DNA of 64,000 nt, from NCBI RefSeq assembly GCF_042242105.1, contig NC_092032.1, positions 5,374,415 to 5,438,414 on the forward strand, read 5' to 3'. This document shows positions 18,001 through 64,000 of this stretch, piece by piece; the stretch's first letter is position 1, and each line of letters opens with the position of its first letter. Source of the DNA: Pempheris klunzingeri. Its lineage: Eukaryota; Chordata; Actinopteri; Acropomatiformes; Pempheridae. The notes below the pieces were generated by a model. It made no database searches. It had not been told where the DNA came from and saw only the letters and a program-made list of their open reading frames with translations. The position numbers and the translations under genes were made by a program.

Positions 18001-18190
18001 TCAGTGGTGATTCCACCTTGCCATCAGCACCTTTGGTTCAAGCTTTGGTTTACTCCAAATGCAAAAAGGCACAGAAATGCCAGCAGTAATAATGTTTTTA
18101 TGAAAAAAAAAAAAACTTTGCTCAAGGTGGAGAAGAATTATCTGATGCCCTGAGATGTTTTACTGCTGCTGGCTTGATTCAGGCCAGAGA

Positions 18191-18400
18191 TCAATCAGTC
18201 AATCAATCAATCTTTATATAGCACCAATCAATAACAGCGTTATCTAAAGACGCTTTCCATAAAGAGCAGGTCTACACCAAATTAAGAGAGAGACCCAACG
18301 ATTCAGGAATTCAAAATTAAGGATTCAAGAATCCCCACATGAGCAGCATCATATATGATATTAGGGAACAATGGCAGGAAGAACTCCCCTTTGTTGTTCT
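18191..18400 (+). mobile_element. Fish retroposon fragment (CAATCAATCTTTATATAGC type)
   Basis: It begins with repeated AATC, then CTTTATATAGCACCAATCAA, GCTTTCCATAAAGAGCAGG and GGCAGGAAGAACTCCC. This module recurs widely in fish genomes as a LINE-derived 3' fragment. Assignment is from memory of the pattern. Confidence 0.55.
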
Positions 18401-52329: not shown

Positions 52330-52475
52330 AAAAATGACGGCCTAACGTCCAAATAAGGGCTAGCTAATATTCTAAATAACAGCAAATACAAACACGATTT
52401 CTAGCAATTTATCAGTCTATTTTTAACCTTTTTATTCTGATCGTCGTTAACACTCATCAAGTTGCACAACTGAAG
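52330..52475 (+). other. CREM: Candidate CREM 5' non-coding exon
   Basis: A near-perfect donor (CTGAAG followed by GTGAGT) ends this block at 52475, downstream of the CCAAT box at 52311-52320. It would splice to the acceptor before 53174. The start of transcription is inferred only from the position of the promoter motif. Confidence 0.45.
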
Positions 52476-53173: not shown

Positions 53174-53322
53174 GAGAAATCAGAGGGAACACCCTGGTCA
53201 GCAGTCCCAGTCGGTGTCTGTCAGGATGAACCAAGTGATGTCAGAAGGGAAATATCAGCTGTATGCACCTCTGCCCTACATGCAAACACCTATTTGCCAG
53301 CAAGCCAGCCACAACCAGTGCA
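53174..53322 (+). CDS. CREM: CREM exon A, start codon of the long form
   Basis: An acceptor (CCCTAAG) precedes 53174. The ATG at 53226 opens 32 codons, MNQVMSEGKYQLYAPLPYMQ and TPICQQASHNQC, then the donor GTAAGC in phase 1. Only 53226-53322 is coding. The peptide is not one I recognise from mammalian CREM. Confidence 0.6.
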
Positions 53323-56300
53323 GTAAGCATGTCTGAAGGCACATTTACTAGCACAGTTTGTCCTACTTCTACCACTACGTCTACTAGCTATAGTGACATA
53401 ATTACTAGAGCTGCTACCACTTCTACTGCGCGAGTAATAAAGCCGGTAGACGAGTTTACATGAAAACTCTATGGAAAGTGACTTTATCTCTGAAAAAACC
53501 TTATTTAACATTAAAACAAGCCTACAGACACACAGTCGCCACCCTGCTCCTAAAGTTGTGATGGTGATTATGTAATTAAAGTGTTGTACGTTTTCAAATC
53601 CAGCAGAACACAATTAGGAACATAATCGTCCCATCTGAGTTGTGTTTCTGTCCCCCCCCCCCGATGAATGTCAGTTCAGTCTTCAGTCTCCTTTTAGCTC
53701 TCTTTTGTCCTCACCAACTCCTGAAGGGAATAGCTAGGTCCTAGGAAATAACTAGGCTTGCTAAGTCTTTACAAGCCAAGAGTAAGTTTTTGTGTGTTCT
53801 GTACGGTCCTGCTAAGTTTGTATTTGCAAAGTTGCAGTCATTCAACACGAACTATTATCAGTGTGTTATTCACACCTTCCAGTTGTTCAACATTGAACTA
53901 TACTTTTTCTTATTGCTTTGTGTATTTGAGAAAGTAAAGTTTGAAATGACAGCCTACTGTATAAAAAGAGTAGAAACTCACAGATCATATATTTTAAGTT
54001 GTGTGATTTCTGATTATTTAATAGGCGATTTTACACTTTTCCCCTGCCAGTTGGGTTTTTCCAAGGAGGTCAAGTTCCTGTCAAGTTTCTGCCTGAGGGC
54101 ACACAGAGCCTGCAGTCTGTGGCCATAAGCAGCACGCCAACACCACAGCCTCAGTCAAACACTGTTCAGTGCTACGGGGACATGCTGAATTGTACGCAGG
54201 CCTATTGTATGGCCCCACTGCCAGGTAACACTTGATAGCGGGATTTGTGTGTATTATTGAAGTGTCGCAACAAACACAGTCGCAGCATTGTGCTCAGTGG
54301 TTGGGTTAGGGTTAGGGTTAGGGTTAGGCCATTAGACAAGCTTTTCCAGGGCCAAGATATTCCTACCATTGCCCATATTCAAGACAATGGTGTCTGAGCT
54401 GTGTAATAGAATTGATGAACAATGTCATATTCATCAAATTGCAAAGAAGAAATGCTAATGTTACCACAATCATAACCAGGCTGTGTAAAAAAAAAAAAAA
54501 TTAAAAAAAAGCCTGATGTATTATCATTTCTTTCCCTTTTTACCTCCCCAGTCGGATACCCTCAAGGAAGTCCTGTCAGGTTCCTGCCTCTGGGGACACA
54601 GAACCAGCCGCGTGCAGCCATGACCAACACGCAAACACCACCTTTACCCTTTGAGTACAGCAGGGAGCTGTGGGGTGGCTCACTGAGGAACGATAAGCCA
54701 CAGCTGCCAGGTAATACCTGATTTCCAGCGACCGCTGTAAAATGATAAGTGTTGAAACTTGTATATTCTATTATGCTGTTATGAAACACAATTAATCAGA
54801 TGCAGTAAGTCACACAGAAGGGCCATTGTTCACAGTGTCTGCTACACGTCAGAGGTGATTTATTGATCACACAGTACGAACACTCTGCAGCTTGCTGCCT
54901 CCTGGAGCAAATTTCCTCGAACGTCTGGTGGCAAAGCCTGATGGGGATGCTTCTGATATATTTCATAGCTGATGAAATCTATTAATTCTATATGAAACAT
55001 GAGGTGGGGCGACACTGACTAACAAGCCGCTATGGGTGAGAGCTTTGTGGCAGTCCAGCAACATTAACATTAAAAGGTAAACCAAATCACATAAAGACAG
55101 AAAGTAGCTCCTCCTCATCCAACTACAACAGTAAAATACTGCACCATCAGTAGTAATAATACAATGACATACAGTAGAATATGATAGTATAATACAGGGG
55201 CCGAGCACTTTCACTTTTGACACTTCGGGCATGTTGTAATTATGCTCCCATGGCATCACTGTAGTTCCCCAGCAGACCTCAGGTCCTCCATTTACCTCTG
55301 TAATTCCTGCAGAGGGAGCCAGCTCCTTTAGCTCTGAGTGTCAGATGAATCAGTTGAGCGATAATGTTTTTGCTGTGACAGTGGCTAAATATACATGCAC
55401 ATGATAACTTGACTATATGAGAAAAATGGCTTCCTAGTGTATAGTTTGGATTAAGTTATTCCACTGTATAATATATGTTCCTTCAATGTACAGTAAAAAT
55501 ACAGTGGGGGGAGAGATAATGATTATAATAAGTATTAATATTGTGTTAATGAACCCGTTTTTGTAACGACTTTTATCAAGATATCAAATTCTGATCACAG
55601 CAATGAAAATACACAGTGTGTTATCAAATTATTTTTTTATTTATTTTATTCTGTTTCATTCTGATTATTTTGATGTTAATTCATTTATTTCTGGCTTGCC
55701 CAATGGAAAAAATTGGGTGCGAGTGAGTGAAGTCCAAATCATCTGTGCCTCCGCTGACCCGTCCACGCTCAACAAGCTGAATTCTTCAGTGCGCTCCACT
55801 CTCGTCGAAGAAAATTCCTTCTCCAAAGACAAACAGCAGAGTCCCTGACTCATAGCTCTGTGTCGGGGAGAGAGCAAACCAAAGTGTTGACATCAGGAGG
55901 CCAGTGATGTCATGGTGATGTCAATGCCTCGAATTGTAAATTGCACACATAGCCTCGCTGTCGGCTGTGGTAACATTTTAGTCAAAGAGAAGACTCTGAA
56001 GGGGACAGCTGCTCTTGGAAAAGCTGGGAGTAGATACAGTATGGCTGTAACTGGGGACGAGACGGAAACAGGTATGTTTGCCATCAGTTCTTTTTGCCTC
56101 CAGATATAAATATTGGGATTTTTCTTTTGTTGTTGTTCAGTTGAGACAGTAATTTAGGAATCTCTCAAAATGTAGTTAGTGGTTGTGTGGGAACATTTTT
56201 GTATTTGAAGTGAAAAAAACTTAATTGGTTTTTCAGATTATTATTATTATTATTTTTGTTTGTGTTTGTCAGAGAATTCTCAGCTCAAAAGCTCAATAAT

Positions 56301-58759
56301 TCTTTTTTAATAATCAATCAGCACCATAAATCCTCCTCCTCTGAATCTGTGGCAAAACTCCATTTTCCACAGTCGGCAGCAACAAGCTCACTCCGATAAC
56401 AACATTTTCACGGGGTCTGCTCGTCTCCTCGGTCATTCTCTCTGTCTTTTTTTTCCCTCTCCCCCCGCCTCCCGCCCCCCCCCCACCCCCCCACCCTCTG
56501 TGAAATGCCTCAGTGCTCTGCCCACTCACAGCACATAGCAGCAGTAGCTGACGTCGCTGCTTTTCCTGGAACAGGCCCCCAGCAGCGACATGTAAATGCG
56601 AACCAGCGAATAAGATGCGCATTGACGTCAGTCCCCGGCCACGCTGTGATTATACGCTGTTCCTTTTGTGACTCCAGCATATCACAGAATTAATCATCAG
56701 TGCATTATACGACATGGGGGGCAGTGAGTTCTGCTGGCCCTGAGCAAACAGTGAAGAGAGGGAGAAGTACAGTAGATAAGATTGCCACGACCTCTCGGCG
56801 TGTTTTTTTTTTTTTTTTTTTTTCTTTTCCAGTGTCATAAACCCATTGATGTGTTAAAAGAGAAGAGAATGCAACGGGGAGTTCAGCCACTTGTACTCTA
56901 TAATTATATCTATTTATTATGATTTATTTAGCACGGCCTCATGCGCAACCGTGCATTTCAAAACAGCCTGAAAATCTTTTTTATAGTCTCCATTAGTGTT
57001 TATTAATGGAGATCAGTCCATTAATAACTATTACTGATTAAATTAAAACAGTAATACATACTTTTAAAAGGAGTAACTTTAATGTATCACTTTGTCGCCT
57101 TAACTGTTATTTTTAGGGTTATATTACTTGTGGTGCTACGGCTTCCTGGAGACAAAGAAAATGTCTTGGTTTCAATTGCTTCCAATCAGTTTAGACATTA
57201 TTTAAGTGTCTAAATTGCTCGCAGAACGACTTAACTCACCAGCATCATACTGGATTTACACATAGCTGGTGCAACCCCATCCTGCTGAGTGACGTGTTGT
57301 TTTGTGTCCACCCAATAGGTGACTCGACCGGCTGCCAGCTGCATAGCCCCAGCTCTAGTGTCCCACAGGAGATGGCGGGGTCCAGCGCTCATAGCTCCCA
57401 CAAACCTGTAGAGGACGCCTTATACAAGAGGGAGCACCGTTTGATGAAGAACAGGTAGAGAGGACCGCTCACACTCATCAGCTACACCCATTATATCAGC
57501 CACTATTGGTGTCTGTGGATTTGGTGGCAGTACAAAATGCCTCAGATAGGTCAGAGGGGCTGTTTTTTTTATTTATTTTTTTTAAAGGAGTAGTTCAGCA
57601 TTTTGGGAAAGTCGCTGAGAGATATCTTAATCCTAAATATGAAGCCACAGCCAGCAGCCAATTAGGTTATTTTAGCATGAAGACTGGTAACAGGTGCTGT
57701 CCCAGCTCCTCTGATGCTCACTGTTCAACACATCACATCTTGTCTGTCCTTGTCTGAGCACTGAGTTAAGTTCATTTTACAACCATGAAATGGCCCAACT
57801 GAGAATTTATTATGGCTACACTCCTTAAAAAACTAATTTCAGGAATCCTCACCAAAACGGTTCTGCGTTTGCGTTAAAAAAAAAATAGATATAGTTATTG
57901 GAAGTCTCAAATGTCCCCATCACACATCAGTCTGGCTCCATTAGACGTTACTGCATACCATCTGGAGGTTATTATCCCCTGTGCTGTACCTGCATCTGTA
58001 CCACACAAACACCTAGCGTACACCAAACGGCAATAAGCGCATGTAATAATAAGATCCACAAGCCTATCATCACTCCACCGCATGATTCTCCTCCATCCCG
58101 GGTGTTTAGCTGCTAATTCTTAGGTTGTCCGACTCTGCAGCGCATGTTTGGAGTGACACGACCAGCTGTGAGTTCGCTTTGCTGGTGAGCAGAATTGATT
58201 ACCCTCTGCTTTTAACTTCTACTTGGCTTGCTGTGCGTGGAAGGCCCTGAGCTGGAAACGACCTTGTGTCACTGACTCACACGCATCTCGTTAGCATGTT
58301 TGCTTGTCCTCCCACGTGATGATTTTATTGTGATCTGCCACCAGTAAATCTTCTTTTCTTCGCTTGGTCTTTCATGACATCACCCTCTTTTATGTGAAGT
58401 CCTATCTTGAATGTATCTAATGTCATAAACACGTTCATCATCTATACATTCTACACGTGAGAAAAGCTTTTGTATTTTTGGAATGTGAGACGTCTTCCCC
58501 CCCCCCCTCGGTGTACACTGATTCACGGCTAGAATGAGCTCTCTGTTACATCTGGGAGAACAGCCAAGCCTGTTAAGGCCTCCTTTTCACGGTAACCGTT
58601 GTCTCTGCTTGCAGGGAAGCTGCCCGGGAGTGTCGGCGAAAGAAGAAGGAATACGTCAGATGCCTCGAAAACCGCGTGGCCGTGCTCGAAAATCAAAACA
58701 AGACTCTGATTGAGGAGCTCAGAGCCTTAAAAGACGTCTATCGACACAAAGTCGAGTGA
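53226..58759 (+). CDS. CREM: CREM, cAMP-responsive element modulator (236-aa long form)
   Basis: CREM is a nuclear bZIP factor that binds cAMP response elements as a dimer. Exons 53226-53322, 54051-54224, 54552-54710, 57319-57454 and 58615-58759 join in phase 1, 1, 1 and 2 to give 711 nt (236 aa and TGA). The C-terminus has the basic region NREAARECRRKKKEY and four heptad leucines (CLENRVA, VLENQNK, TLIEELR, ALKDVYR), ending YRHKVE like mammalian CREM. Residues 1-143 are not recognisable: there is no RRPSY kinase-inducible site and no Q-rich domain of the CREB/CREM kind. Synteny (CUL2 on one side, CCNY on the other) supports CREM over CREB1 or ATF1. That the three upstream exons belong to this transcript is inferred from phase and open frame. 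Confidence 0.75.
54051..54224 (+). CDS. CREM: CREM exon B (unfamiliar, 174 nt)
   Basis: It follows a good pyrimidine tract and acceptor (TTTTCCCCTGCCAG) and ends at GTAACA. In frame it reads GFFQGGQVPVKFLPEGTQSL and continues to YCMAPLPG. The exon is phase 1 at both ends, so it can be skipped without a frameshift. It shares a core (FLP.GTQ) and the ending LPG with exon C. Confidence 0.65.
54303..54328 (+). repeat. Interstitial telomere-like repeat (TTAGGG)n
   Basis: About four head-to-tail copies of TTAGGG stand in the intron between CREM exons B and C, where vertebrate telomere sequence is not expected. It is short and probably a repair scar or chance expansion. Confidence 0.8.
54552..54710 (+). 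CDS. CREM: CREM exon C (unfamiliar, 159 nt)
   Basis: The acceptor is TTTTTACCTCCCCAG, the donor GTAATA. It reads GYPQGSPVRFLPLGTQNQPR through NDKPQLPG and is phase 1 at both ends. It resembles exon B and probably arose from the same ancestral exon. It then splices in phase to 57319. Confidence 0.65.
55888..55923 (+). promoter_or_regulatory. CREM: ICER internal promoter: three CRE-like elements
   Basis: TGACATCA (55888-55895), TGATGTCA (55905-55912) and TGATGTCA (55916-55923) lie within 36 bp. The first is the exact reverse complement of the other two. They stand about 120 bp before the ICER start codon. In mammals the internal P2 promoter of CREM carries a cluster of such CRE-like autoregulatory elements, through which cAMP induces ICER and ICER later represses itself. 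No clear TATA box is visible. Confidence 0.75.
56041..56071 (+). CDS. CREM: CREM ICER-specific first coding exon
   Basis: The ATG at 56041 opens MAVTGDETET and one base of Gly, then the donor GTATGT. This matches the mammalian ICER start MAVTGD in sequence, length and phase. Spliced to 57319-57454 and 58615-58759 it gives a 103-residue protein with the bZIP and no activation domain, that is, the inducible cAMP early repressor. Confidence 0.88.
56549..56630 (+). promoter_or_regulatory. CREM: Consensus CRE and near-CRE in CREM intron
   Basis: A perfect palindromic CRE, TGACGTCA, is at 56623-56630 and a one-base variant, TGACGTCG, at 56549-56556. Both are downstream of the ICER exon and upstream of exon D, in a locally GC-richer patch. 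They could bind CREB/CREM dimers, but no transcript start is visible beside them. Confidence 0.45.
57319..57454 (+). CDS. CREM: CREM exon D, spacer and start of basic region
   Basis: Acceptor CCCAATAG, donor GTAGAG. It encodes DSTGCQLHSPSSSVPQEMAG through ALYKREHRLMKN. The last part (KREHRLMKN) is the CREB-family lead-in to the basic region. The exon accepts either exon C or the ICER exon in the same phase. Confidence 0.92.
57584..57725 (+). mobile_element. Short interspersed element in CREM intron
   Basis: AAAGGAGTAGTTCAGCATTT, then AAATATGAAGCCACAGCCAG and AGCATGAAGACTGGTAACAG form a module I recognise as a frequent percomorph interspersed repeat. It lies between exon D and the terminal bZIP exon. 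Confidence 0.6.
58615..58759 (+). CDS. CREM: CREM terminal bZIP exon
   Basis: The acceptor is TGCTTGCAG. It encodes EAARECRRKKKEYVRCLENR then VAVLENQNKTLIEELRALKD and VYRHKVE with TGA at 58757. This is one complete basic region and leucine zipper. I could not find the second, alternative DNA-binding-domain exon that mammalian CREM carries. Confidence 0.95.
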
Positions 58760-59782
58760 TTCCTCCCACTGGAGGAGGGACCGGGCTCGTGTGGACTGGG
58801 TTGCTGTACTTCTATGGTGTGTGTCGAGGACTCTGGATTTGCTTACACAGACACACACGCACTCACAAACACACGCTCACACAAAACACTCCTCGTCTTT
58901 GCTTTTAAATGTGTTTACATGATGATGTCAATGTCTCTGGCTCTGAATTATCCACCACCAGCAAAACAAGAAGCTCGTTTCAGGTCAGCAGTTATTATAG
59001 TGAATACTACGCAGAGCCTATATCCTGCTGAACAGGGAGGCGGCCAGAGCAGGCAGGAATCTATGGAAGACCTGCAGACCGGAGATGGAGAATAAGGCGC
59101 TGAAGGCGTCTCGACACCCTGCCTTGATATGCCACCATCACCTTTTACATTCCTTTATCATCAGTTAGAATACTTTTATCAACTGATGCTGTTTGCTGTG
59201 TTTGTGTGTCAGGAAATGCTGCCATAAACCAAATGTTCAAAGGGAAATGGGTGATCAGGGCTTCACACAGCAATGTTTGTATTTTATCTCATTCCACCTA
59301 AGAAATCCTGATGGAAGCACACCACCGGGAGTTAACACCCTCCTTAATTTCCCCCCCTTCTTACTGTATATTTGGTGTAGAGACGTAATCAGGATCTCTT
59401 GTGCATCTGTGTGAGGACACTAACCTGTGGCATTCACTTTTGATTCGGACGGTTTACGCTGTGTTTTTATTGGTTTTAAACACCGGTGGTTAGCCTGAAC
59501 AAAAAAAAAAAAAGCTTTATCTTAATGTGGATGAGTGTATATTTATTTAGACGCATTTGTGGAAGTTGTTCTAGCTTACTTGTTTTAACTTTACTGTTTC
59601 GATGCTTTGCTCGGTCTCAGTGTACATGTACATGATTTTTTTTTGTCACTTCGACAGTGCGGGCTCTATAGACATTTAATACAGAAATTCTACGTTTCTC
59701 GTTTCTTCGTTTCTCCCCTGTGACACATTAGCTCTTGTCTTTTTATGATCGCATCTTATTTGAAGGGTCTTATATTCACTTC

Positions 59783-59788
59783 AATAAA
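59783..59788 (+). terminator. CREM: CREM polyadenylation signal
   Basis: AATAAA lies 1.02 kb after the stop codon, followed within 30 nt by a GT-rich stretch (CCGTGTTGTTC). It marks a 3' UTR of about 1.05 kb. Confidence 0.7.
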
Positions 59789-59809
59789 GTTCTTGCTCAG
59801 TCTCCGTGT

Positions 59810-61830
59810 TGTTCTCACACACAGTAAATACAATAGCTACATATAAGAAAAAAAGCCCCTTACTTGACCATCATTTGTAACCAGCGAGTCACTGCCAGCC
59901 ACTAATGTTCCATTATGAGCGTGTGATAAAGCTTTAATCACCACGCTGAGTTGTAACCTTGTGTTACTGCTCAGATCGCAGCGTGCTGTCCCTTCAGCGG
60001 TGACACAAGCGTGATTGCTAGGACACATCTTTTGTTGCCTTTTGCAGATGAGACATATTGTGGAGGCTGGAAGAAGGGGGTGTAAGACAAGGATGTGAAC
60101 ATAAAACACATCTGGAGGAATGTGGACGTGCTACAGGTGGCTGGTTTTCAGGGATGGTATTCTCTGAACCACTCATAAGGCAGGCTAACTTGTAGTAGGG
60201 ATCAAACTATAATACTGATATGACAGGTATAACCACTGAAAGGGGAAAATGGAAAAAAAAAACAAAACTCACCTTTGGAGTTTTTATTCGCTCACTTTAA
60301 GATGATTAAGATGATTTTTGCTTTACATCTACATCTACATCTTCGTGCTTTGTGTTGGCTTGCGTGTTTCCAGCACTGTCACTCCACATGTGCAGTTTGT
60401 TAGGGAGTCATCATGGAAACAAAACAACTGAAGAAAGAATCCAATACCACTGGGACTTGTGCTGCACCTGGGCCTATTGTGAAACCTGATTCCTGTCCAG
60501 TCTGTAACAAAACACAGTCAACTTCCACCCCGATAGAGACGAAACCACACTGTGGAATGCACCAGTAGGGAAAAGGAAATACTGTCCATGTGTGGCCAGA
60601 GACCGGGCACTCATCCAGCTACTCTGTAGTCAGAGATCTTTGCTTGCAGAGTTTGAAAAAAAGATGGATATATGTGCAAGAACATCTTTTATAGTATAAA
60701 ACACCTTTTCTTAAACTTCTGCAGGTTGTCATGTGGACCCCCCCCCCCCCTTCTTTAAATGCAATGCAGCTGCAGCACCAGCAGGCTGTGCTACAGCACC
60801 ATGCCTCATCACAGCAGCCAGTGTAAACATGCAAAAAAAAAAAAAAAAATCTATCTATTCTCAAACATTCCTCAGTCTCCAGCATCAGAAGTGGCAGTCT
60901 GGGGGCACCGGCTTGTGCATATTGTCTTGCATGTCGTGGAACCATCGCACAGGATTAGGCTGTTCCTCAGGACTTCACTTTGTTTACGTTAACCTCTGCT
61001 AATCCCACTTAATCCTGCAGAGAGATTTAGTGTGAGCAGCCATTTCATTCTGTCACAGGCAGAGCAAAGTCCTCATGCATTAGTCAGTCATGAGTCAAGG
61101 AGGAATGATCAACATCACACACACAAATATTGGGAAGAAGGAAATGACTGCTGTCCATGTTTGGGGCCAGAATGTGCCATGACGCAGGGATGTACAGCAG
61201 CAGGAGTGAAGCAAAGAACAATTTATATATCTTCTTATTTTATTGTGATACTGACTGTGCATCAATACTGGAACAAGTGGAGCAAATCAGTGATGCACTT
61301 CAGGAGCCCAATTCAACCCTTGAGAGGGCCTATTCTATTCTATTCTATTCTATTCTATAATATTCTATTTTTTTCTTAATTTAATGTATTGCAACCCTCC
61401 AGTGACAGTCATAATTGTCCATTTATCTCCCAGCTGTAACCACCCACTTGAACCGGAACCTTTTCCATTAACAGCCACGGCGCTGTACGTTGTTCAGGAT
61501 AGATTTACGTGCTACACCAAATATTGTAATTTCTAACGTGTGCATGTACAACCTTTCTCCCGCAATATAATGATGAGCGAACAACAGAAAAACAGTGAGT
61601 GACTGAAGACAACTGCTACTGATGCGTTTTTCTTCTGCAAATTTGCAACATACACAGGTCGGACAATGCTAAAAAGGTTCAGAGATATAACCTCAAAAGT
61701 TGTAGTTCGTTTAATTTTGACTCTCATAACACTCTTTTTTTCATTGAATTTTTTTTTTTACAATAATTGTATTCGCTCGAGCTGTCGAGGGTGAAAAAGC
61801 CACTTTATTATTATAGAATGAATTCAGAGG
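59810..61830 (+). other. CREM-CCNY intergenic spacer
   Basis: It contains poly-C and poly-A tracts, a (TATTC)n run at 61325-61370 and a 51-codon ORF at 60413-60568. I see no recognisable gene. Confidence 0.6.
60413..60568 (+). CDS. Possible small ORF, 51 aa, unknown
   Basis: The ATG has A at -3 and G at +4, a strong initiation context. The peptide begins METKQLKKES and has a CxxC (SCPVC) followed by an HCGMH end, a pattern that could bind a metal. A fair splice acceptor (CACATGTGCAG) sits 20 nt before it. I do not recognise it, and random ORFs of this size are common. Confidence 0.15.
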   Translation: METKQLKKESNTTGTCAAPGPIVKPDSCPVCNKTQSTSTPIETKPHCGMHQ

Positions 61831-62427
61831 TGCGGAGCCATTTCTCAGCCGTGTAGAGGAACGCCCGACTTTACGGGGAGCACCTGAAAGCAGCGCGGCA
61901 GCGGATGTAGCAGCAGCGTCTGCAGCACATCGGCAACCATGTAGCGCCGAGGGCCGAAATATCTCCCCTCAGCGAGCTCAAGGCAAATGTCCTCACAGTC
62001 ATTCATGTCGCCGTGAAGTTCCAGCGTATCAGAATGCGTCTGTGGAGGTAACTGGACGCCCGGACGGAAATTACAAGGCGAGGGAGTCGAGTGTGAAACC
62101 GACGCCTGAAAGATAGAGGCTCTATCTGTCCTCGGCTGGACGTTTGGAAGGGGGACGTCGGGCTGCTCCTCTGATTTATTAGCCTACCTCGGCGTTTCTC
62201 AGCTTCTTAAATGACCGCACTTGTCCGGCTCTGCGTCTTTCACACTCAGGGGAAGGGCGTGTAACGCTAACGGACACCGGGGTTTGCACCAGGTCTGGAT
62301 ATCCGCGTTACCGCCCCGTTTTTTTTGTTTTTTTCCCCCTCTGTCGTGGTAACGCGAACAGCGCGACCAGAAGAAGAAGGCAGAAGACTGTTGGCTTTGG
62401 ACTATAACCAAAACCGGCTTCCACACC
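61830..62427 (+). promoter_or_regulatory. CCNY: CCNY CpG-rich promoter and 5' leader
   Basis: From about 61.83 kb the composition shifts to GC- and CpG-rich sequence that continues into the coding exon, as expected of a housekeeping promoter and 5' UTR. No TATA box is apparent. Confidence 0.55.
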
Positions 62428-62581
62428 ATGGGGAATACCACCTCCTGCTGCGTGTCATCCAGCCCCAAACACCGGAGGAACAATCACTCCAGGCTCGAGC
62501 CCTACCGGCCGGAGCCGGAGCTGAGCCGGGAGGACACGGGCTGCAACCTCCAGCACATCAGCGACAGAGAGAACCTAGACG
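62428..62581 (+). CDS. CCNY: CCNY coding exon 1 (cyclin Y, N-terminus)
   Basis: Cyclin Y is a membrane-tethered cyclin that activates CDK14/CDK16 and takes part in Wnt co-receptor phosphorylation. The exon encodes [20 protein letters not shown] through [13 protein letters not shown] plus one base, ending at GTGAGA in phase 1. Gly2 in MGNTTS fits N-myristoylation, and Cys7/Cys8 are possible palmitoylation sites. [17 protein letters not shown] is characteristic of cyclin Y. The cyclin box exons lie beyond the right edge of the window. Confidence 0.96.
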
Positions 62582-64000
62582 GTGAGATGCAGTCACCTCC
62601 TCCCTGACGTGGAAATGACATGATGCACACACCGAATGATCAAATTAGCATGAGTGATCCGTGTTGTTGTGATGGGACAGTGGTTTACCCCTCTGATCAC
62701 GAAGGCTGGAAGCGTTTGCAGATAATCAAAGCTGGCAACATCTGTGCGGAGGACCCACCCACCCATCACACCAATAACTACAGAGCTGGAGGCTCCCTTT
62801 GCATTGTACTCCAGCATTAGGAAGGCCCTAAAGATCTTATTTCCTTAAATCAAAAAAAGTTAGTGATTGTGCACTAAGATCATTTCAGCCTAAATTTGAT
62901 TCAAATGAACCTCTATTTTTTTAAAAACTGTCCTCAAACCTGATTCCAGGTTCGTGGAACAAATGCATCCTAATTTTAAAGGCGATCACATGTTTTGAAT
63001 GTCCAATCCTAATCTGGAAAGTCACTTGTAAATGTTTGCCACCTGCCTGTAGTGCAGTTGGAGTATACATTAGCAGATACACAGAAATCCAAGTACATAA
63101 AAGTTATGGAGGTGATTTGCAAACTGGGATGTGAGAGTACCAGCATGTTTTTTGCAGGGGAAACAAGTTTAATGTTCGTTTTAGCTTCACTGATTCCTTC
63201 CGTTATCATAAAAAGCTTCCAGGTTGACCCTGTTGGGTCCTATCACATTAGCACCCCTGACTGGTAGGCTTGTATATTTTTCCAACCCAAGTCCAGAATG
63301 CAGTTTGAATGAGTCTGCTGGCTTGATGTAGGACCCTGCGCTTGTGTCACGTTCACCATGTGTCCGTAAGGTTGGGACAGCGTGCTGAAGGGCCAGTGTG
63401 AGTTTGTGTTCCAGTAGGAGGTGATGTGATAATGATGGCACGTGTGTTTTCCTGCAGGGAGCTGAAGAGGAACTGACCAGACACACGTCTGAATGCTCAT
63501 TAACACCAGCAAAGTCACACTCTGCTGCACATTTTAGATCTTAAGTTTAGATCTAATGTTTAGATCTAATGTTTAGATCTAATGTTTCCTGCGGCTCATG
63601 GGGACGTTTTAGGGGTTGCCAAGCAAATTGAGGATTAATGTAGTAAGACTTTTTTTTTCTGCTTGTTCAAGGTTCGCACACTTGTTTGAGGCACAAGATG
63701 AATATTTGATCTGTAAAGTTGATATATTTAGACATTGTATGGATTTCATCAGGGACCAGTGAGGCCTAAAGTGTCTGATTGTGTATCACAGACACACATA
63801 AAAGCGTAGGTATCCCAGTGATCAGTAAGCGATGGGGAAGGAGAGCGGGGAAGGCAATCATCCCAGCATGCCCACACAGTAAGGAAACTACCAGCAATGC
63901 TTGTGGTAGAACATGTGAAACATTAGCAGGGACCAGCCCTGTGCTAGTTGGAGAAAACTCTGCAGGTCGTAGCGCAGCACCGAATGTGGCATCGGAACAA
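62582..64000 (+). other. CCNY: CCNY intron 1 (partial)
   Basis: It runs from the GTGAGA donor to the window edge. No exon was recognised. A triple 13-bp repeat lies at 63545-63583. Confidence 0.8.

What the first reader, a model, noticed from the sequence alone, without database searches (positions are those of the whole stretch)
53174..57454. CREM without a recognisable kinase-inducible or glutamine-rich domain
Full-length vertebrate CREM carries the RRPSY phosphorylation motif and Q-rich domains on exons upstream of the bZIP. Between the divergent promoter and exon D I could read no RRPSY, no YQTS-type block and no Q-rich exon. Instead there are three short exons (32, 58 and 53 residues or so) with good splice sites and uniform phase 1. 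If real, this copy of CREM cannot be activated through the PKA site and may act as a repressor or through a new partner, perhaps after loss of function partition with a second teleost CREM copy.
Basis: partly seen in the sequence, partly recalled or inferred. Interest (0 to 1): 0.75.

Follow-up and report, generated by a model that had tools for sequence, protein, structure and literature searches.

The report
Fish CREM copy built as repressor
One of two fish copies of the gene CREM has lost the part that lets cAMP signalling switch it on, but keeps the promoter, first exon and DNA-binding part that make the short repressor ICER, so it looks like a gene that has become a dedicated brake; no RNA or protein has been tested.

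Summary
The core observation holds: this CREM copy (53,174-58,759) has no KID. A genome-wide KID search gives 4 matches, one in each of the four other CREB-family genes and none on this contig. Two details need correction. Exon B is a diverged Q2 exon and exon C a tandem duplicate of it. Exon A probably descends from the exon ending TPIYQTSSGQY, so its YQTS block is altered rather than absent. Both match the second crem copy on contig C15, which keeps Q1, KID and Q2. In a DNA comparison of the two copies the conserved crem segments are the CRE cluster, the ICER exon, the end of exon D and the bZIP exon; exons A-C do not align. Synteny (cul2-crem-ccny here, crem-ccny on C15) supports a duplicated crem pair. 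Best reading: a crem ohnolog reduced to an ICER-type CRE repressor, with a decaying KID-less upstream arm. Known ICER biology explains it without a new partner. New variant of a known kind; function is inferred from sequence only.

The parts
53174..53322 (+). Exon A: probable relic of the exon between the RRPSY exon and Q2 (KID second half ... YQTSSGQY). Start codon 53,226; phase 2 in, phase 1 out
   Evidence: 149 nt against 143 nt in the C15 copy, same phases. Donor-anchored tail TPICQQASHNQC vs TPIYQTSSGQY (one and the same 11-mer in C10, C24 and C2): 5, 7 and 12 of 20000 shuffles reach the score; vs the C15 tail TSIYQTSSGQY 116 of 20000. Of 2169 GT-preceding open 12-mers of the window, 2 reach the creb-tail score and 5 the crem-tail score, itself included; another place scores higher. 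Against: whole-exon alignment is weak (p 0.04-0.19), and with the C15 exon (z 0.97) no better than with the wrong partner Q2 (z 1.16)
54051..54224 (+). Exon B: diverged Q2 (glutamine-rich) exon, 58 codons, phase 1-1
   Evidence: tblastn E 0.001 to the C15 Q2 exon; z 4.5, 1 of 2000 shuffles (p 0.0005); 11 of the first 19 exon bases equal (read)
54552..54710 (+). Exon C: tandem duplicate of exon B, 53 codons, phase 1-1
   Evidence: B vs C alignment z 8.5; C vs the C15 Q2 exon only z 1.5; B vs C dN 0.554, dS 0.648
55888..55923 (+). Three CRE-like octamers (TGACATCA, TGATGTCA, TGATGTCA): ICER-type intronic promoter cluster
   Evidence: C15 has TGACTTCA, TGATGTCA, TGATGTCA; steps of 17 and 11 bp here, 19 and 11 bp there; 83% over 54 columns, E 9e-9; 0 of 1000 dinucleotide shuffles have 3 within 40 bp
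56041..56071 (+). ICER-specific first coding exon, MAVTGDETET + 1 nt, donor GTATGT (its 5' untranslated part is not mapped)
   Evidence: 9 of 10 full codons' residues identical to the C15 exon; DNA E 7e-4
57319..57454 (+). Exon D: shared exon ending in the first half of the basic region (KREHRLMKNR)
   Evidence: tblastn E 7e-6 from the C15 exon
58615..58759 (+). bZIP exon (second half of basic region + leucine zipper + stop)
   Evidence: Exon D + bZIP: the three best of 4 PDB sequence matches are CREB bZIPs, best E 5.5e-26; dN 0.059 with saturated synonymous sites vs C15
46239..50453 (-). cul2 exons, divergent upstream neighbour (synteny)
   Evidence: Four exon translations typed together match Cullin-2 chains, E down to 1.3e-83; places
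62428..62583 (+). ccny (cyclin Y) first exon, downstream neighbour (synteny; gene name recalled)
   Evidence: 76% identical exon 6 kb downstream of the C15 crem

Best explanation
The gene is one of two crem copies (ohnologs, probably from the teleost genome duplication). SHOWN by sequence: no Q1 or RRPSY exon is found; diverged descendants of the next exons remain (A, probable; B = Q2; C = duplicate of B); and a conserved ICER module is kept: a CRE cluster, the ICER start exon, exon D and an intact CREB-type bZIP. INFERRED: its main product is ICER (103 aa predicted), made from the intronic promoter when cAMP activates CREB at the CRE cluster. ICER then occupies CREs as a homodimer or as a heterodimer with CREB/CREM/ATF1, blocks activation and shuts down its own promoter. 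Any transcript from the upstream promoter gives a KID-less protein (236 aa predicted) that would also compete for CREs without recruiting CBP through phospho-KID. The C15 copy keeps the activator form.
For: KID absent here and present in all four other CREB-family genes found. ICER exon conserved. CRE cluster conserved in number and nearly in spacing. blastn of 10.7 kb of C21 against 40 kb of C15 (plus strand, E up to 1): 7 hits; those in the crem gene are the CRE cluster, the ICER exon, the end of exon D and the bZIP exon, plus one chance-level non-collinear hit (E 0.36); the other two are ccny exon 1 and a 31-nt block upstream of ccny; none in exons A-C. bZIP under strong purifying selection. 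Synteny. ICER as a KID-less repressor from an intronic CREM promoter, autoregulatory through CREs: PMC12381921, passages read.
Against: No RNA evidence for any exon or promoter. Exons A-C are still open with usable splice sites, so the upstream arm may also matter. The ICER module is equally present on C15, so specialisation is one-sided. Exon D upstream of the basic region is loosely conserved (dN 0.68, dS 1.06). No orthologue from another fish could be examined with these tools, so how old or widespread the KID loss is remains unknown.
Confidence: 0.72

Rival explanations
1. ICER-only (overlaps with the best explanation): exons A-C are dying relics, rarely or never spliced; the sole useful product is ICER.
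For: B vs C dN/dS about 0.85; exons A-C not alignable at DNA level to C15; a neutral simulation of substitutions leaves B and C both open in 5-18% of 5000 runs per setting, so open frames alone prove little.
Against: Three consecutive open exons with intact splice signals and compatible phases; B is still recognisable as Q2 although synonymous sites to C15 are saturated.
Confidence: 0.35
2. The upstream KID-less isoform has gained its own function or partner through exons A-C.
For: Tandem duplication of the Q2-derived exon and retained frames; B and C are each a multiple of 3 and can be skipped without frame change.
Against: No sign of strong constraint between B and C; no Pfam family outside the bZIP reaches its cut-off.
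Confidence: 0.12
3. The KID exon exists but is missing from the assembly or lies elsewhere.
For: Assemblies can lose exons; a genome-wide search can miss a very diverged exon.
Against: No N in the 64 kb, the 53 kb upstream of exon A searched; the 4 KID matches genome-wide are each accounted for by another CREB-family gene.
Confidence: 0.03
4. The whole locus is a pseudogene.
For: No Q1 or RRPSY exon, relaxed upstream exons.
Against: Intact bZIP with dN 0.059 vs C15; conserved ICER exon and CRE cluster.
Confidence: 0.03

Closest known systems
ICER (inducible cAMP early repressor), the intronic-promoter product of vertebrate CREM
   Same: Start exon MAVTGDETE- (recalled for mammals, and present in the C15 copy), clustered CRE-like sites upstream, KID-less bZIP product
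   Different: Here the surrounding gene has no Q1 or RRPSY exon that could be found, so KID-less products are all it can make. Exon D lacks the two SP sites of the C15 copy (S37-P, S43-P), which I match from recalled sequence to mammalian ICER S35/S41
Second crem copy on contig C15 of the same genome
   Same: ICER module, bZIP type, ccny neighbour
   Different: C15 keeps Q1, KID and Q2 exons; one Q2 exon was found there, not two; no cul2 in the 40 kb read
creb1 copies (C24, C10) and atf1 (C2), names assigned from recalled sequence
   Same: bZIP exon and the intron position between the halves of the basic region
   Different: All three have Q1, KID and Q2; no ICER exon was found in the stretches read

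Membership tests
CREM (gene) | CREB-type bZIP with split basic region | tested here: met
CREM (gene) | ICER exon and intronic CRE-rich promoter, distinguishing CREM from CREB1/ATF1 | tested here: met
   ICER exon not found in the creb1/atf1 stretches read
CREM (gene) | Synteny with ccny (and cul2) | tested here: met
   the human gene order is recalled
CREM (gene) | KID with RRPSY | tested here: not met
   By origin still a CREM copy; as full-length activator CREM it does not qualify
CREM (gene) | Glutamine-rich Q1 and Q2 exons | tested here: inconclusive
   Q1 not found; Q2 present but diverged and duplicated
ICER | Short KID-less product starting at the ICER exon and spliced in frame to the bZIP | tested here: met
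   Predicted 103 aa open frame; transcript not tested
ICER | cAMP-inducible, autorepressed transcription; CRE repression | not testable with these tools
   Needs RNA and reporter assays

The most novel reading that the evidence does not exclude
After genome duplication one CREM copy became a dedicated ICER gene: a cAMP-inducible repressor freed from the activator. It also lost the two SP phosphorylation sites matched to the ones that trigger mammalian ICER ubiquitination and removal, so its brake would be longer-lived than that of the other copy.
Probability: 0.3. Interest if true: 0.62.

Novelty: new variant of a known kind. Interest (0 to 1): 0.45.

Why it matters
CREM is a classic case of one gene making activators and repressors. 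A copy in which the activator part is gone while the ICER part is conserved is a natural separation of the two, and would let ICER function be tested by knocking out one gene without removing the CREM activator. If the missing SP sites make the protein stable, it also gives a natural counterpart to the engineered S35-41A ICER (PMC12381921, passages read).

Tried and rejected
Rejected: KID hidden elsewhere in the window (tblastn with KID, Q1 and next-exon queries); atf1 or creb1 identity (those genes are on C2, C24 and C10; the ICER exon and ccny synteny point to crem); a second alternative bZIP exon (none found downstream in either copy as far as ccny); exon A as homologous over its whole length (weak, p 0.04-0.19, and no better with C15 than with the wrong partner, z 0.97 against 1.16; only its tail supports homology, in a test chosen after seeing the sequence). 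Rfam on 52-64 kb gave 0 matches. Pfam on three single neighbour exons gave 0 families, so cul2 was identified by PDB sequence search instead. The bZIP dS was a frame error of mine and that script stopped with an error; one search replaces it (the B, C and Q2 values were computed before it and stand). One search printed exon ends that were off by 1-2 bases for B, C, D and the bZIP exon; one search uses the corrected ones. In one search the C15 donor scores for exons E and X were taken at wrong positions and are not used. The control stretch (14.0-24.7 kb) gave 2 matches, one strong (E 8e-35) and unexplained, one at E 0.10.

Papers: 10 searches (in one search only 15 of 2,333 papers were listed). 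Passages were read in PMC12381921, PMC5132329 and PMC9857879; the others were seen as listings only. None of these listings or passages described a KID-less crem copy in fish, but the library is open-access only and this is no claim that none is in print. PMC5132329 says ICER is not yet well characterised in teleosts and reports a blast hit of one crem transcript to a grouper ICER.

Full report
Setting. The window lies at C21:5,374,415-5,438,414 of a 646 Mb genome in 439 contigs; that it is a teleost is inferred. cul2 is on the minus strand (Cullin-2 chains, E down to 1.3e-83; places), the crem gene on the plus strand, and ccny starts at 62,428. This matches the human CUL2-CREM-CCNY order as I recall it.

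Family census. The bZIP query gives 6 matches genome-wide: C21 (this gene), C24, C15, C10, C2, and one weak match on C16 (40% identity, E 3e-4) that I leave out as outside the CREB family. PF02173 (pKID) gives 4 matches, on C24, C10, C15 and C2. So 4 of 5 CREB-family genes have a KID and the window's gene does not. C15 carries Q1, KID, Q2, an ICER exon and bZIP, with ccny 6 kb downstream: it is the other crem copy. A weaker ccny-like exon (57%, E 2.6e-5) lies 6 kb from the C10 gene, as expected for creb1-ccnyl1 (names recalled). I assign C24 and C10 to creb1 and C2 to atf1 from their sequences, by recall. No cul2 exon was found in the 40 kb read around the C15 gene; the genome-wide cul2 search did not complete.

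The three exons. Exon B and the C15 Q2 exon both follow a phase-1 intron, and 11 of their first 19 bases agree (read). The proteins align at E 0.001 and z 4.5. Mismatched pairings score z 1.2 (A with Q2), 0.3 (B with the exon before Q2) and -1.0 (C with it). C matches B at z 8.5 but Q2 itself only at z 1.5, so C is a later duplicate of B (dS 0.65, against saturation between B and C15). Exon A has both phases and about the length (149 against 143 nt) of the exon between the RRPSY exon and Q2. Its whole-exon alignment is weak (p 0.04-0.19 with the four genes; with C15 z 0.97, no better than the wrong-partner control). Its last 12 residues at the donor do resemble TPIYQTSSGQY: 5, 7 and 12 of 20000 shuffles for the three creb/atf1 exons, which share that 11-mer, and 116 of 20000 for the crem C15 exon; of 2169 GT-preceding open 12-mers in the window 2 reach the creb-tail score and 5 the crem-tail score, itself included, and one other place scores higher. 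I treat that homology as probable, not shown. With the upstream exon that I read by eye ending near 52,475, the frame meets a stop just before exon A, so the ATG at 53,226 is the likely start; this is unverified.

The ICER module. At 56,041 the sequence reads MAVTGDETET followed by one base and a GTATGT donor, in phase with exon D; 9 of these 10 residues equal the C15 exon. Three CRE-like octamers lie at -153, -136 and -125 from the ATG; C15 has three at -221, -202 and -191. This is the only 60-bp cluster of three in the 64 kb window (34 octamers with at most one mismatch in all); in 8 other loci of the genome, 80 kb, 25 such octamers were found and no two within 60 bp. The 7.4 kb region has 8, against a mean of 2.4 in 1000 dinucleotide shuffles, none of which had three within 40 bp. 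In blastn of 10.7 kb of C21 against 40 kb of C15 (plus strand, E up to 1) 7 matches were returned: ccny exon 1, bZIP exon, a 31-nt identical block upstream of ccny, the CRE cluster, the ICER exon, the end of exon D, and one at E 0.36. Exons A-C gave none.

Selection. The bZIP exon differs from C15 by dN 0.059 with pS 0.909, i.e. saturated synonymous sites. Exon D before the basic region is loose (dN 0.68, dS 1.06). B against C gives dN 0.554 and dS 0.648. A neutral simulation of substitutions only (no indels, splice sites not modelled) leaves both B and C open in 5-18% of 5000 runs per setting, and B alone in 6-9% of 3000 runs, so the open frames are only weak evidence that A-C are used.

Mechanism. 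Shown: no KID or Q1 exon found, retained ICER exon, CRE cluster and bZIP. Inferred from known ICER biology (PMC12381921, passages): induction through CREs, repression by CRE occupancy, autorepression. The C15 ICER frame has SP sites at residues 23, 37 and 43; C21 has one, at residue 20. By recalled mammalian sequence the 37 and 43 sites correspond to S35 and S41, whose phosphorylation leads to mono- and polyubiquitination. Their absence suggests a more stable repressor, a prediction only; the remaining SP could substitute.

Verdict. A one-sided split of a duplicated crem pair, with this copy left as an ICER-type repressor, is the best reading. It is a new variant of a known kind; the missing evidence is RNA and orthologues.

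Noticed in passing
61435-61465; L021 6159-6189 (minus): 31 of 31 bases identical between C21 and C15 upstream of ccny exon 1 (3 of 22 loci hold it, which are these two places); conserved noncoding element or repeat, not resolved.
   Followed up: partly
56549 and 56623: TGACGTCG and a perfect TGACGTCA lie in the intron after the ICER exon, in or near a pyrimidine-rich stretch; possibly another promoter.
   Followed up: no
18190-18334: 145 bases match the C15 stretch at 80% (E 8e-35) in a control comparison; probably a repeat.
   Followed up: no
58760-62427, and the C15 copy down to ccny: No second alternative bZIP exon found in either crem copy, unlike mammalian CREM as I recall it.
   Followed up: partly
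54304-54329: About four TTAGGG-type (telomere-like) units in the intron between exons B and C, i.e. between the duplicated exons.
   Followed up: no
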